This document shows, in pieces, positions 464-5,403 of a DNA stretch of 7,215 nucleotides. The notes under the pieces are model-generated. The model was not told the DNA's origin and ran no database searches. It was given only the letters and a program-made list of their open reading frames with translations. Source of the DNA: a bacterium (GTDB taxonomy: Bacteria > ARS69); assembly GCA_025774865.1 (NCBI GenBank), contig JALGZO010000496.1, positions 1 to 7,215 on the forward strand, given 5' to 3'. Both the position numbers and the translations under genes were made by a program. Position 1 is the stretch's first letter, and each line of letters begins with the position of its first letter.

Positions 464-853
464 ATGAGCGAGCAAAAGATCGCCACGACAGGAACGACCC
501 CGAAGGCGGGAGGCGGAACACCGGGCGGAGGAGGACTTTGCGACCCAGTGATCACGATCCTCAAGCCCGGGAGTGAGGACAAGACCCTGTTCCCGAACCC
601 CATCGCCTACGTTCCGATGGATCCACCGTGCGATGGGGGGTCGATCACGTGGGTCCTCAACAGTCAGCCCGGCAACACGGTGAGATACGAGATTCTGCCG
701 TCACCCGTTTTCGACCTCACGGGCATCCCGCTCAAGGGCACCCTGGATCATCAACAGTTCTTGAAGATACCCTTGGTTACCGAGGACGCCGGTGCGGGCG
801 CCGTGGTCTTCAGCGGAAGCGATCCCGTGACGTCCGTCGTCATTATCGATTAG
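464..853 (+). CDS. Small hypothetical protein, Gly-rich N-terminus, probable beta-rich body
   Basis: I do not recognise this 129-residue protein. It has an ATG start with a good Shine-Dalgarno sequence (453-459). Residues 1-24 are polar and low in complexity, ending in a Gly-rich run at 15-24 (AGGGTPGGGG). There is no signal peptide or membrane segment. From about residue 25 the chain alternates hydrophobic and polar residues with frequent Pro/Gly, as in a beta-sandwich. It ends in SVVIID, which looks like a final strand. Two cysteines are present, C26 and C56. It follows the TPR gene on the same strand after 70 bases with little room for a separate promoter, so co-transcription is likely. 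The flexible N-terminus followed by a folded body might suit a partner or substrate of the TPR protein, but that is speculation. GC at third codon positions is 98 of 129 by hand count, similar to the TPR gene and below the rest of the window. Confidence 0.7.
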   Translation: MSEQKIATTGTTPKAGGGTPGGGGLCDPVITILKPGSEDKTLFPNPIAYVPMDPPCDGGSITWVLNSQPGNTVRYEILPSPVFDLTGIPLKGTLDHQQFLKIPLVTEDAGAGAVVFSGSDPVTSVVIID

Positions 854-880: not shown

Positions 881-2929
881 TCACTCGAGGTAACCCAGCG
901 CCCGGAGCCGGTCGGCCTCCTCCGCGGTGAGCGGCCGGCGCGCCGGGGGCGGGCGCGTCGGGTCGCCCAGCGGCGGCAAGTACCTTGCGAGTGACTCGGC
1001 CTCGTCCGCGAAATCAGCCGCACGATCGCGGCGTTCCTCGAGGTCATCGGCCATCGAGAAGAGCTCCCGGCGGTCGGGGTAGTCCACGAGCTTCCACCGG
1101 TCCGCGACGACCGCACGTGCCGGAATCCGCGCGAGCTCACCCGCGCGGTCGAAGAAGCCCGGGTCGGTCGGCCGCGGCGTTCCGAAGAACTCGATCGGCA
1201 CGGTGCCCGGCCCGGACACCGCCTCGCGCAGATCGCGCCCGATCCCCAAGGACTTGCCGCCCCCGATCGCCGACAGCGTGGCCGTGACGTCCAGCAGGCC
1301 CACCGCCTCTTCCCGACGCGGCAACTCCTCCCCGGCCGGCGGCATCACGATCAAGGGGATCCGCACCTCTTCGTTGTAGATCGAGGTCCCGTGCGCCACC
1401 GCACCGTGTTCCCCGAACGCTTCGCCGTGATCGGCCGTGATCACGACCCACATGCGGTCCAAGAGCTCACGGCGTTCCAGCTCGTCGAGCAGATCGCCGA
1501 TCGCGGCGTCCAGGGCAAGGATCTCCTCGTCGTAGCGGCTTCGGGCGTGCGCGAGCCTCTCCGCCGGATCGCGCGCATCCACCGTCACGGGCGGGGCGCC
1601 ACTCATCCCCTGCGAGAACACACCGGCGTGCGGTGACGCCGCCGCGTACGGAGCGTGGGCCTCCATGTAGTTCGCGAGAACGAACCAACCGCTCGGGGCC
1701 GCCCCGTCGACAAACCGGAGCACTTCCCGGTTCACGACGGGGGCGGCGGGGTACGGCTTCACGGTGTCGGCCAGGAGCCATGGCACGAATCGAGCTCGGA
1801 GCTTCTCCCCGATCAGGAACAACGGGCGCGGGGACGGCGGCTCCCAGAATACGTCGAAGCCACGTTCCATCCCGGGCGTCGCGCCGAGCTGCACGTTCGC
1901 GGAGATGACGGCCGTGCGGTAACCGTTCGCCCTCAAGTGCTCGGCTAGTGTCACATCCGCCTCGAGCCGCGGCACGCTCGGGGTGGACCGTCCCGGGTAG
2001 CGCACGTTGCCTCCGTGCGCCCCGTGCGCCGTGGGAACGGTACCCGTCAAGAGCGACGCGTGAGCCGGCAACGTCCAGGTGGCCGTCGAGAACGCGAGCG
2101 GGAAGAGCACCGCCCGCGGCCGTTTCTCGAGCCACTGCGAGAGACGCGGGGTCGTGTCGCGCTCGTAGCCGTAGATCGACAGCTGGTCGGCGCGGACGGT
2201 GTCGAGAACGATGAGGAGGATCGGTGGCCCCGCTTCGTTTCTCGCCGCCGCCGCGGCCGGCGGCTCGGCCGGCCCGCCCAGATCTCCGCTCTCCATGCCC
2301 CACGGTCGCGCGCGATACGTGAACGGGGTGACCAGGACGACGACGGCAAGGACCGCCACCGTGACGACGATCTCGCGCGGCCATCGCGGCCGGCGGACCC
2401 GGAGCGCCGCGTACTCGGAGAACGTGAACAGAATCACGGCGAGCACGAGAACTCGCAGCACATCACGAGCGACGCCCGGCGGAAACCAGGCCGCAAGAAG
2501 AAAGAGCACCTTGGGGAAGATGACCAGATCGAGACAGACCGCTCCGCCGACCGCAACGCCGAGCCCCCACGGCGAGACGCCGGCCCGTCGCGCCGCGGCG
2601 AGCCCCCCTGCCGTCACCGCAGCGAACGCGAGCCCGACCAACAGGCCGCGACCGCCCGCAAAGAAGACCGCCGCCTGGAGGCCCGCCCAGACCGCGAGCG
2701 CCCCGACGACCGCTCCCGGGCCGCGCGACCGCGCGACCGGCATCCACACGAGGAGGGTCGCCAGCATCGTCGCCGCGAGGCAGAGCACCAGGTATCGCAA
2801 GGGCGGCAACGGACCGAGAGGCGCCAGGACGGCGATCTCGAATGCGAACGACGTCGTCACCGCGGCCACCAGCGCCGCGCCGGGCGACGCGCCCTGACGG
2901 TCGATCGACTCCGAAGTCATCCACGCCAT
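881..2929 (-). CDS. Membrane-anchored sulfatase-like hydrolase (alkaline phosphatase superfamily), Thr nucleophile
   Basis: The protein has 682 residues. The first 205 or so are strongly hydrophobic, with about six or seven likely membrane helices (about 18-38, 43-66, 73-92, 96-114, 122-148, 155-176, 187-203). A Pro/Ala-rich linker (208-235) follows, then a sulfatase-fold domain. Visible motifs are the metal-binding start LIVLDTVRADQ (D243), STATWTLPAHASLLTG (281-296), H425 in MEAHAPY, ADHGEAFGEHG (D500, H501) and HGTSIYNEEVRIPL (H513). The position of the formylglycine Cys/Ser of true sulfatases is Thr286 (TLPAH), and the usual Arg is His290. This resembles phosphoglycerol or phosphoethanolamine transferases and related phosphohydrolases rather than sulfate-ester hydrolases. 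The catalytic domain probably faces the periplasm. The C-terminus LTAEEADRLRALGYLE is a common ending in such proteins. Two starts are possible: ATG at 2929, or ATG at 2920 (Met4), which has the better-placed Shine-Dalgarno sequence. The substrate cannot be read from the sequence. Confidence 0.9.
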   Translation of the reverse strand: MAWMTSESIDRQGASPGAALVAAVTTSFAFEIAVLAPLGPLPPLRYLVLCLAATMLATLLVWMPVARSRGPGAVVGALAVWAGLQAAVFFAGGRGLLVGLAFAAVTAGGLAAARRAGVSPWGLGVAVGGAVCLDLVIFPKVLFLLAAWFPPGVARDVLRVLVLAVILFTFSEYAALRVRRPRWPREIVVTVAVLAVVVLVTPFTYRARPWGMESGDLGGPAEPPAAAAARNEAGPPILLIVLDTVRADQLSIYGYERDTTPRLSQWLEKRPRAVLFPLAFSTATWTLPAHASLLTGTVPTAHGAHGGNVRYPGRSTPSVPRLEADVTLAEHLRANGYRTAVISANVQLGATPGMERGFDVFWEPPSPRPLFLIGEKLRARFVPWLLADTVKPYPAAPVVNREVLRFVDGAAPSGWFVLANYMEAHAPYAAASPHAGVFSQGMSGAPPVTVDARDPAERLAHARSRYDEEILALDAAIGDLLDELERRELLDRMWVVITADHGEAFGEHGAVAHGTSIYNEEVRIPLIVMPPAGEELPRREEAVGLLDVTATLSAIGGGKSLGIGRDLREAVSGPGTVPIEFFGTPRPTDPGFFDRAGELARIPARAVVADRWKLVDYPDRRELFSMADDLEERRDRAADFADEAESLARYLPPLGDPTRPPPARRPLTAEEADRLRALGYLE

Positions 2930-2990: not shown

Positions 2991-4340
2991 ATGCTTTCCG
3001 TGATCCGTTCCGCCGCGATCCTCGGCGCGGTCGCCGCCGCGCTCTGCCTCGCGAGCTCCGCGCACGCCGCGCCCGGCGACACCACCATCGTCCGAACCTT
3101 CGACCAGGACTTCTACAACTGGGCGACCCCCCACTACGAGACGTTCACGCTCCCAGACGATCCGGAGAACTGGAGCAAGGTCGTGATCCTCTACACGATC
3201 GGCTGCCCGGGACCTCCGAACGACTGCGACCCGTGGGATCGCCTCGGCCACCTGCGCGTCGTACGGGAATCGGACGAGACCGAGATCGCGCGGATCATCA
3301 CGCCGTACGACATCACGGGAGGAGACCGGCCCGGCACCTGCACCTGGGAGATCAACGTCACGGCGTACAAGTCGATCCTGCACGGTACGGTGACGCTTCG
3401 GAACTACATCGAGTCGTGGATCGGAGGCGAGAACGGCTGGCTCGTGACGATCGACTTTCTCTTCATCGAGGGCACACTCGCTCTCGAGCCCTATCGTGTG
3501 ATCGATCTGTGGGGAGCCGACCACCTGGTCTACGGGAATCCGGAAATACCGATCGAGGACATCTTGACGCCTGTCCCGGTGGACATTCCCGCGGACGTGG
3601 AGCAGGCACGAGTCCGGGTCTTCACCACCGGTCACGGGCAGGGGAACACGCTCAACTGCGCGGAGTTCTGCCCGATGGATCACAGCGTCGTGGCGGGAGC
3701 GGACACCTATACGCACCTGCTCTGGCGGTCGAACTGCTCACAGAACACGTGCAGCCCGCAGGGCGGCAACTGGACCTCCGGGCGCGCCGGGTGGTGTCCC
3801 GGCGACAAGGCGAAGGCGTGGAACGTCGACGTCACGGCGTCGCTCACGCCCGGCCAGACGATGACCTTCCAGTACCAGATCGAGGACTACGAGAACCTCT
3901 GTCGCCCGTCGAACCCCGAGTGTGTCAACGGAGTGACCTGCCCCGACTGCAATTACAACAGCACTGGCCACACGCAACCGCACTACACGACCCAGGCTCA
4001 GCTCATTCTCTACAAGTCCCACTCGGCCGTCGTCGGGGCGGGGGACTTCGACGCGCAGATGGACGGCGTCGTCCTCGAGCAGAACGTCCCGAACCCCGCT
4101 CGAGACACCACGCTCATCCCCTACTCGCTCGATCGCCCGAGCTCCGTTCAGCTCGACATTTACGACGCGGCGGGGCGCCTCGTCCACGAGGTCTCACTCG
4201 GCCGGATTCCGGCCGGCTCGCACTCCTACCGGTGGAATGGACGCGGGCAGTCGGGCCAGCGGGTCGCTTCCGGGGCGTACTTCTACGTCATCGAGACGGC
4301 GGACGCGAGGCAGTCGAAGAAGCTCGTGATGGTGCACTGA
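2991..4340 (+). CDS. Secreted peptide-N-glycosidase F homologue with FlgD-like C-terminal sorting domain
   Basis: PNGase F hydrolyses the amide bond between Asn and the first GlcNAc of N-glycans on glycoproteins. This 449-residue protein starts with a signal peptide (1-26, cleavage after AHA), with GAGG at 2981-2984 as its ribosome binding site. Residues about 30-343 align by eye along the whole Elizabethkingia enzyme: TFD near the start, CDPWDR (79-84), ITPYD, YIESW (139-143), CAEFC (223-227), GNWTSGRAGWCPG (259-271) and ILYKS. Mature PNGase F residues D60, E118, W120, E206 and R248 correspond to D83, E141, W143, E225 and R265. The disulfide pairs 51-56, 204-208 and 231-252 correspond to C72-C79, C223-C227 and C249-C269. 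PNGase F W207 is Phe226 here. An extra insertion at 304-320 holds four Cys. Residues about 359-449 form a FlgD-like/type 9-style sorting domain: LEQNVPNPARDTTL, IYDAAGRLV, AGSHSYRWNGRG, ASGAYFYVI and a C-terminal KKLVMVH. The activity is predicted from this alignment. Confidence 0.92.
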   Translation: MLSVIRSAAILGAVAAALCLASSAHAAPGDTTIVRTFDQDFYNWATPHYETFTLPDDPENWSKVVILYTIGCPGPPNDCDPWDRLGHLRVVRESDETEIARIITPYDITGGDRPGTCTWEINVTAYKSILHGTVTLRNYIESWIGGENGWLVTIDFLFIEGTLALEPYRVIDLWGADHLVYGNPEIPIEDILTPVPVDIPADVEQARVRVFTTGHGQGNTLNCAEFCPMDHSVVAGADTYTHLLWRSNCSQNTCSPQGGNWTSGRAGWCPGDKAKAWNVDVTASLTPGQTMTFQYQIEDYENLCRPSNPECVNGVTCPDCNYNSTGHTQPHYTTQAQLILYKSHSAVVGAGDFDAQMDGVVLEQNVPNPARDTTLIPYSLDRPSSVQLDIYDAAGRLVHEVSLGRIPAGSHSYRWNGRGQSGQRVASGAYFYVIETADARQSKKLVMVH

Positions 4341-4341
4341 G

Positions 4342-4375
4342 CTTCGGCCCCGGTGCCGCTCACTCCGGCCCGAAG
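4342..4375. terminator. Possible bidirectional terminator at the 4340/4360 tail-to-tail junction
   Basis: CTTCGGCC (4342-4349) faces GGCCCGAAG (4367-4375). They pair as an 8-bp stem with a single bulged base and a 17-base loop. The hairpin spans the end of the PNGase-like gene and the stop codon of the convergent cytochrome gene. There is no T-tract on either side, so its strength as an intrinsic terminator is doubtful. A related and more perfect repeat sits at 6112-6144. Confidence 0.3.
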
Positions 4376-5403
4376 TCGGGGTTCTCGAGAAACTCGAGAT
4401 CCGAGAGCGTCTTCAGAAACGCGATGAGGTCGGCCTTTTCCGGTTCCGTGAGCGAGAGACCCGGCGGCCCGTGGACCCTGAGGACGGCGTCGAGATTCGG
4501 CGACGGCTGCACTCCCGACGAGTAGTGATCCATCACCTGCTCGAGGGTGTCGAAGCGGCCGTCGTGCATGTAGGGCGCGGTGTGCTCGATGTTGCGGAGC
4601 GTCGGTGTGCGGAACTTGCCGTGGTCGGGCTCCCGTCCGGTGACCGCCTGGCGTCCCGGGTCGACCGGCGCGAGGTCCAGCCCGTTGTCGTGATACTCCT
4701 CGTCCGTGAAGAACAGCGTGCCGTGGCAGTGGAAGCACTCCCCGGTCTCGTTGAAGAAGAGGCGCTCACCGCGACTCTCGGCCGTGGTCAGCTCGAGCTC
4801 TCCTCGGAGGTGTCGGTCGTAGCGTGAGTGGTTCGAGATGAGCGTTCGTTCGAACTGCGCGATCGCCTTCACCACGCGGTCCTCGTCGATCTCGATCGTA
4901 CCGAACGCCCGGCCGAAGAGTTCCGGGTACTCCGCGTGGGCCGTGAGGCGCGGGATCGCCTCGTCCCAGGGAAGCGCCATCTCGATGGGGTTCGGCACCG
5001 GCTCTCGCGCCTGGTCCTCGAGGCTCGGCGCACGCCCGGCCCAGAAGAACTCCCGCAGCCAGGCCGCGTTCGCGAGCGCGGGAGCGTTGCGCGTCCCGAG
5101 GCTACCGTCGACCCCCTCGCTGAACCGGCGCGGATCGGAAAATGCGTGCGCTTGGTCGTGGCAGCTCGCGCACGACTGCGTGTGATCGAGTGACAGGATG
5201 GGATCGTGGAAGAGACGCCGCCCGAGAGCGACGCCTTCTCTCGTGAGCGGGTTGTCGGGGAACTCGGGGAACGGACGGAGCCCTTCGGTATCGGGCGTGA
5301 ACGGCCTCGGATCGGGGAACCCCTCGCCTGGTCCTGTATTGTCGCTGCATCCCACGACTACGACGAGCGAGAGAAGGAATGTGGAGCCGCGAGGAATAGA
5401 CAT
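4360..5403 (-). CDS. Lipoprotein di-haem cytochrome c, cytochrome c peroxidase/MauG family
   Basis: The product has 347 residues, a usual length for this family. It begins with a lipoprotein signal peptide: hydrophobic residues 8-18 and lipobox VVGC with the modified Cys at 19. A disordered Gly/Pro/Asp-rich tether follows. Two c-type haem sites are visible: CASCH (78-82) and CFHCH (223-227). Family signatures are GRRLFHDP, RNAPALANA, WAGRAPSLEDQA (121-132), NPIEM, FRTPTLRNIEHTAPYMHDGRF and TLEQVMDHYSSG (286-297). Proteins of this group reduce hydrogen peroxide or, like MauG, carry out oxidation through high-valent iron. They act in the periplasm with electron donors such as small cytochromes. 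The position I align with the distal Met of bacterial peroxidases (Met275 in Pseudomonas) is Tyr294, as in MauG. No mau genes are present. The start at 5403 gives a proper lipoprotein signal but has no clear ribosome binding site. It lies head-to-head with the thioredoxin-like gene. Confidence 0.92.
   Translation of the reverse strand: MSIPRGSTFLLSLVVVVGCSDNTGPGEGFPDPRPFTPDTEGLRPFPEFPDNPLTREGVALGRRLFHDPILSLDHTQSCASCHDQAHAFSDPRRFSEGVDGSLGTRNAPALANAAWLREFFWAGRAPSLEDQAREPVPNPIEMALPWDEAIPRLTAHAEYPELFGRAFGTIEIDEDRVVKAIAQFERTLISNHSRYDRHLRGELELTTAESRGERLFFNETGECFHCHGTLFFTDEEYHDNGLDLAPVDPGRQAVTGREPDHGKFRTPTLRNIEHTAPYMHDGRFDTLEQVMDHYSSGVQPSPNLDAVLRVHGPPGLSLTEPEKADLIAFLKTLSDLEFLENPDFGPE
5391..5396 (+). 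promoter_or_regulatory. Ribosome binding site candidate for the long form of the thioredoxin-like gene
   Basis: GAGGAA at 5391-5396 is five bases before the ATG at 5402 and supports the longest sensible start. It lies inside the signal-peptide coding region of the divergent cytochrome gene. If it is used, the two genes share their first bases. A competing site, GGAG at 5612-5615, sits eight bases before a TTG at 5624. Confidence 0.35.

What the first reader, a model, noticed from the sequence alone, without database searches (positions are those of the whole stretch)
2991..4340. PNGase F homologue with the full catalytic and disulfide set, fused to a FlgD-like sorting domain
Hand alignment to the Elizabethkingia PNGase F sequence from memory places Asp83, Glu141, Trp143, Glu225 and Arg265 on D60, E118, W120, E206 and R248. 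All three disulfide pairs are also conserved. PNGase F-type enzymes are sparsely distributed in bacteria. One in a high-GC, apparently environmental lineage with a secretion-sorting C-terminus suggests a true secreted protein de-N-glycosylase, used to attack eukaryotic glycoproteins or to process the cell's own. The Trp207-to-Phe226 change beside the catalytic Glu could alter activity or specificity.
Basis: partly seen in the sequence, partly recalled or inferred. Interest (0 to 1): 0.75.

Follow-up and report, generated by a model that had tools for sequence, protein, structure and literature searches.

The report
T9SS-secreted PNGase F-type N-glycan amidase
This gene almost certainly encodes an ordinary, secreted bacterial enzyme of the well-known PNGase F kind, which cuts sugar chains off the asparagines of glycoproteins, in an uncultured bacterial lineage; the one residue change that looked unusual is in fact the normal state of the family.

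Summary
Window 2991-4340 (+) encodes 449 aa: a signal-like N-terminus, a complete PNGase F-type catalytic domain (about 27-345) and a type IX secretion (T9SS type A / FlgD-Ig-like) sorting tail (about 362-449). Searches hit PNGase F (E 5e-28) and zebrafish Ngly2 (4e-9). D83, E141, W143, E225 and R265 fall on D60, E118, W120, E206 and R248; all three disulfide pairs align. T9SS genes are present and the tail occurs at about 150 places in the genome. The 'Trp207-to-Phe' point fails: Phe (and His at Trp191) is found in all 30 other sequences scored, including the proven PNGase Ngly2; PNGase F is the exception. T9SS-tailed PNGase F-superfamily enzymes were already published (PNGaseL, PNGaseDo). 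What is new is modest: a supported clade of seven proteins from four bacterial families, marked by a four-cysteine insertion (7/7 members, 0/23 others) and an extra cysteine pair. The gene is an orphan; its genome lacks detectable STT3, GH92, GH20 and GH38, so neither self-glycoprotein processing nor classic glycan harvesting is supported. Most likely role: deglycosylating eukaryotic glycoprotein debris. Activity is inferred, not shown.

The parts
2991..3068 (+). N-terminal signal-peptide-like segment, residues 1-26 (MLSVIRSAAILGAVAAALCLASSAHA)
   Evidence: Sequence read directly: hydrophobic core, then A-x-A before APGD; mature PNGase F also begins APAD. No signal-peptide predictor was run.
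3069..4025 (+). PNGase F-type catalytic domain (residues 27-345), two jelly rolls
   Evidence: phmmer 1pgs 4.8e-28 and 9lwg 3.9e-9; N-glycanase_C over cut-off; domain model: top 11 structural matches all PNGases, Z 14.7 to Ngly2 and 13.5 to PNGase F.
3234..3242 (+). W82-D83-R84, the aromatic-Asp-positive motif (= W59-D60-R61)
   Evidence: Alignment of 32 sequences and of the clade.
3411..3419 (+). E141-S142-W143 (= E118-T119-W120)
3633..3635 (+). H215 (= W191 of PNGase F; His in every other family member scored)
   Evidence: PMC12381499.
3657..3671 (+). C223-A-E225-F226-C227, catalytic Glu between the disulfide cysteines (= C204-A-E206-W207-C208)
3783..3797 (+). R265-A-G-W268-C269 (= R248, W251, C252)
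3900..3959 (+). Four-cysteine insertion C304-RPSNPE-C311-VNGVT-C317-PD-C320-NYN, hallmark of the clade
   Evidence: Pattern present in 7/7 clade members and 0/23 other family members; no counterpart in the aligned part of PNGase F.
4074..4337 (+). T9SS type A / FlgD-Ig-like C-terminal sorting tail (residues 362-449)
   Evidence: PF13860 5.7e-15, TIGR04183 over cut-off, about 150 places with the same tail in the genome, structural match to the PorU C-terminal domain Z 10.5 and to FlgD Z 9.6.

Best explanation
[quoted passage not shown] It is exported by Sec, carried across the outer membrane by the cell's T9SS through its C-terminal tail, and anchored to or released from the surface. There D83 and E225 carry out the PNGase F-type hydrolysis of the GlcNAc-Asn amide bond, with W82, R84, E141, W143, H215 and R265 holding the chitobiose core. 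Its likely use is removing N-glycans from eukaryotic glycoproteins in the surroundings so that secreted peptidases can digest the polypeptide. Shown here: homology, residue conservation, the sorting tail, and presence of T9SS genes. Inferred: catalysis, substrate and ecological role (the last is the weakest step). The confidence given is for the enzyme class and its export, not for the ecological role, which I put near 0.5.
For: Homology 4.8e-28 to PNGase F. Every catalytic and chitobiose-contacting position is conserved across the 7-member clade. The three active-site features described as broadly conserved in the superfamily (aromatic-D-positive/aromatic; His+Glu; Trp/Tyr; PMC12381499) are all present. 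Ngly2, with the same E-F-C motif and the same TGHG His, is a proven PNGase whose D60- and E206-equivalents are essential (PMC12753239). Six superfamily members chosen from diverse clades were assayed as PNGases, five clearly active and one (PNGaseCg) weakly (PMC12381499). Domain model Z 13.5-14.7 to PNGases. SprA over cut-off (about 530 bits in one frame) and C25/PorU-type peptidases in G000. Catalytic domain 62-64% identical to orthologues in two other genera of the family, while the tails are 31-47% identical, as for an enzyme under constraint with a looser sorting module.
Against: No activity data. Both structure models are low in confidence (mean pLDDT 58.5 and 57.1), with the active-site loops under 50, so the cleft geometry is not tested. 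The debris-feeding role rests on absences (STT3, GH92, GH20, GH38) in a 92.65%-complete draft genome, and GH92 is also missing from 19 of 25 other genomes with a PF09113 protein (Fisher p 0.30), so that absence is not distinctive. No neighbouring gene ties the protein to a glycoprotein pathway.
Confidence: 0.87

Rival explanations
1. Active PNGase used for nutrient sugars: the released N-glycan is imported and degraded, as in Bacteroides-type glycan utilisation loci. (A rival on role, not on enzyme class.)
For: The usual role assigned to prokaryotic PNGases (PMC12381499); a Hymenobacter plasmid homologue sits among GH27, alpha-L-fucosidase and SusC genes; G000 and G001 have GH18 genes.
Against: No GH92 or GH20 in any of the 7 clade genomes and no GH38 in G000, G001, G004; no glycan genes recognised beside the window's gene.
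Confidence: 0.2
2. The enzyme trims or recycles the cell's own (bacterial) N-glycoproteins.
For: Orphan gene apparently kept vertically in the family (window and G004 share the AI-2E transporter neighbour, 62% identity).
Against: No STT3/PglB-type oligosaccharyltransferase in G000 or in 100%-complete G001; only weak partial hits in G002 and G004, and G002 has no PF09113 gene.
Confidence: 0.04
3. A catalytically dead or repurposed PNGase-fold lectin or adhesin displayed by T9SS.
For: PNGase-fold relatives are diverse; some sampled members have other residues at the E118/W120 positions.
Against: All catalytic and chitobiose-contacting residues are intact in 7/7 clade members, which a binding-only role would not require.
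Confidence: 0.06

Closest known systems
PNGase F, Elizabethkingia meningoseptica (1PGS/1PNF)
   Same: Same two-domain catalytic core, with the same start of the mature chain (APxD); same D60/E118/W120/E206/R248 set, W59/R61 and all three disulfides; 31% identity over the aligned domain.
   Different: His for Trp191, Phe for Trp207, shorter loop before the catalytic Glu, an extra Cys pair (C117, C254) and a 4-Cys insertion; a T9SS tail follows, while the PDB chain of PNGase F (314 residues) ends after the catalytic domain.
Zebrafish Ngly2 acid PNGase (9LWG)
   Same: EFC motif and TGHG His; best structural match of the domain model (Z 14.7); proven PNGase activity (PMC12753239).
   Different: Arg61 position is His in Ngly2 but Arg here; Ngly2 has PA and Tx-like domains, has no Glu aligned at position 118 and is lysosomal.
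PNGaseL (Flavobacterium akiainvivens) and PNGaseDo (Draconibacterium orientale)
   Same: PNGase F superfamily catalytic module with a C-terminal T9SS signal, assayed (PMC12381499).
   Different: Their sequences are not held here, so clade membership and the 4-Cys insertion could not be compared.
PNGase F-II (4R4X), PNGase Bf (3KS7), PNGase Pm (7ZGN)
   Same: Same fold and His+Glu active-site loop.
   Different: PNGF-II and PNGase Bf fall in a separate, well-supported clade; PNGF-II and PNGase Pm carry an N-terminal bowl-like module.

Membership tests
PNGase F superfamily (PF09112 + PF09113) | Significant match to the C-terminal domain profile PF09113 | tested here: met
   66.9 bits against a cut-off of 25.
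PNGase F superfamily (PF09112 + PF09113) | Match to the N-terminal domain profile PF09112 | tested here: inconclusive
   20.6 bits, just under the cut-off of 22.4; but phmmer aligns the whole N-terminal domain to 1pgs and residues 29-163 of the model match it at Z 14.8, rmsd 2.4 over 125 residues.
PNGase F superfamily (PF09112 + PF09113) | Catalytic Asp60 and Glu206 | tested here: met
   D83 and E225, invariant in the clade.
PNGase F superfamily (PF09112 + PF09113) | Aromatic-Asp-positive/aromatic motif, His+Glu on one loop, Trp/Tyr on another (PMC12381499) | tested here: met
   W82-D83-R84, H215+E225, W143.
PNGase F superfamily (PF09112 + PF09113) | Two eight-stranded jelly rolls with the catalytic residues in one cleft | tested here: inconclusive
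   Whole-domain match Z 13.5, rmsd 4.9 over 268 residues of 1pgs, but pLDDT 57 with active-site loops under 50; cleft geometry not resolved.
PNGase F superfamily (PF09112 + PF09113) | Release of N-glycans from glycoprotein | not testable with these tools
   Needs an assay.
T9SS type A cargo | C-terminal sorting domain (TIGR04183 / PF18962 / CHU_C / FlgD_ig-like) | tested here: met
   TIGR04183 31.9 bits (cut-off 23) and CHU_C 27.8 (cut-off 27); PF18962 22.7, below its cut-off of 27.
T9SS type A cargo | T9SS machinery in the same genome | tested here: met
   SprA about 530 bits in one frame at G000:C42 (cut-off 200); C25/PorU-type peptidases. Other components not searched.

The most novel reading that the evidence does not exclude
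The seven-member clade, with its 4-Cys insertion, extra Cys pair and the combination Arg61 + His191, is a functionally distinct PNGase subfamily with a different substrate (for example N-glycans of protist, archaeal or bacterial surface proteins) or an unusual pH range, used for protein rather than sugar harvest.
Probability: 0.15. Interest if true: 0.45.

Novelty: new member of a known kind. Interest (0 to 1): 0.2.

Why it matters
If active, it adds an untested, cysteine-rich branch of T9SS-exported PNGases as candidate glycobiology reagents (possibly stable, possibly with another pH range or tolerance of core fucose). It also points out that PNGase F-type genes often occur in genomes without GH92 exomannosidases. 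It does not change the understanding of the superfamily.

Tried and rejected
Trp207-to-Phe as a function-altering change: rejected, it is the family rule. Cell's own N-glycoproteins as the target: no STT3 in G000 or G001. Phage or plasmid cargo: no phage match, no relative in viral contigs, only two distant plasmid homologues. Lack of GH92 as a special trait of the clade: 0/7 against 6/25 in other genomes with a PF09113 protein, Fisher p 0.30, not significant. Conserved operon: none; only the AI-2E transporter (62%) and the thioredoxin-like ORF (30%) are shared with G004, and the sulfatase-like genes near the G001 orthologue are only about 27% identical. A paper search for PNGase together with 'type IX secretion' and N-glycan found nothing, although PMC12381499 describes such enzymes as 'T9SS'.

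Full report
What is there. The ORF at 2991-4340 (+) is real and correctly bounded. The 449-aa protein has three parts: a signal-like N-terminus (1-26), a PNGase F-type catalytic domain (27 to about 345) and a C-terminal sorting tail (about 362-449). Pfam gives N-glycanase_C 2.1e-18 over its cut-off, N-glycanase_N 4.1e-4 just under its cut-off, and FlgD_ig 5.7e-15; NCBIfam gives the T9SS type A sorting domain over its cut-off. Against solved structures the best matches are PNGase F (4.8e-28) and zebrafish Ngly2 (3.9e-9).

Residues. I aligned the catalytic domains of 30 proteins from sampled genomes (the window's included) with PNGase F and Ngly2. The three disulfide pairs (C72/C79, C223/C227, C249/C269) are also aligned. 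W59 and R61 are kept as W82 and R84.

The Trp207 point. The finding treated Phe226 in place of Trp207 as a possible cause of altered activity. In the alignment all 30 other non-PNGase F sequences also have Phe there, and all have His where PNGase F has Trp191; PNGase F alone has Trp at both. Ngly2, which shares both, is an active PNGase whose D60- and E206-equivalents are essential (PMC12753239). The 2025 survey of the superfamily says the same about the His/Trp position (PMC12381499). So this is the normal state.

Clade. A maximum-likelihood tree puts the protein in a supported clade of seven (99/97), next to orthologues in two other genera of its own family (G001, G004) and with members from three other families (G197; G200 and G331; G244). 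PNGase F itself sits on a long branch whose place is unsure. The catalytic domains of the clade are 48-64% identical to the window's; the tails only 29-47%. All seven keep every catalytic and sugar-contacting position. Two features mark the clade: an insertion C-R-P-x-N-x-x-C...C-x-x-C-x-Y/F-N before the last strand (7/7, against 0/23 other family members) and a conserved extra cysteine pair C117 and C254 (7/7). The C204/C208 disulfide is kept only in the window's own family; the other four members have lost it. The function of the insertion is unknown; it may hold two disulfides or a metal site. I could not place it relative to the active site.

Structure. The catalytic-domain model has mean pLDDT 57.1, yet its eleven best structural matches are all PNGases, led by Ngly2 (Z 14.7, rmsd 4.8, 263 residues) and PNGase F (Z 13.5, rmsd 4.9, 268 residues); the next, unrelated match is Z 9.3. 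In the full-length model the N-terminal jelly roll matches 1pgs at Z 14.8, rmsd 2.4 over 125 residues, and the tail matches the PorU C-terminal domain (Z 10.5) and FlgD (Z 9.6). The fold is supported; the cleft geometry the finding named as its refutation test is not resolved, since those loops have pLDDT under 50.

Secretion. The genome holds SprA well over cut-off, C25/PorU-type peptidases and about 150 places with the same tail. The tail is thus a house-style export signal, not a special fusion. T9SS signals on PNGase F-superfamily enzymes were already reported for PNGaseL and PNGaseDo (PMC12381499).

Role. The gene is an orphan. Its neighbours are a membrane sulfatase-like protein, a MauG/MbnH-like di-haem lipoprotein and an AI-2E transporter; only the last and a thioredoxin-like ORF are shared with G004. 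No STT3 is detected in G000 or in 100%-complete G001, so trimming of own N-glycoproteins has no support. GH92 and GH20 are missing from all seven clade genomes, and GH38 from G000, G001 and G004, though GH18 occurs in G000 and G001. That weakens classic sugar harvesting and leaves protein harvesting as the best guess. The argument is weak by itself: 19 of 25 other genomes with a PF09113 protein also lack GH92.

Verdict. A new member, in a modestly distinct clade, of a known and recently surveyed enzyme superfamily, with a known kind of export tail. Activity is highly likely and untested.

Noticed in passing
881-2929 (-): 682-aa protein with a hydrophobic N-terminal half and a sulfatase/alkaline-phosphatase-fold domain (Pfam Sulfatase 3e-31); by eye the motif reads T-L-P-A-H (...TATWTLPAHASLLTG...) where sulfatases have C/S-x-P-x-R, so it is probably not a formylglycine sulfatase, more like a phosphoethanolamine-transferase type enzyme.
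   Followed up: no
4360-5403 (-): Putative lipoprotein (...VVVGCSDN...) of the di-haem MauG/MbnH-like family (TIGR04039 274 bits, below its cut-off of 362.85); its substrate protein was not looked for.
   Followed up: no
L009 / L049 (G003), L030 (G029), L025, L027, L029: A second PNGase F-like subfamily with the motif GHCTDG..DEF and Asp in place of Glu118, one member in the window's own family; it forms a starred clade of its own and keeps D60 and E206.
   Followed up: partly
L039 (G244): The clade member from G244 is 807 aa or longer: extra domains lie between the catalytic domain and the T9SS tail.
   Followed up: no
L061 (Hymenobacter sp. NBH84 plasmid): A distant PNGase F-type gene sits on a plasmid in an apparent glycan-utilisation locus (GH27, alpha-L-fucosidase, ROK, SusC), unlike the orphan gene of the window.
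   Followed up: no
G000 whole genome: About 150 places (the number scored, so possibly more) carry the T9SS/FlgD-like tail in a 4.7-Mb draft genome, a large predicted secretome for a phylum with only five genomes held here.
   Followed up: no
464-853 (+): 129-aa ORF with a Gly-rich start and no Pfam or NCBIfam match.
   Followed up: no
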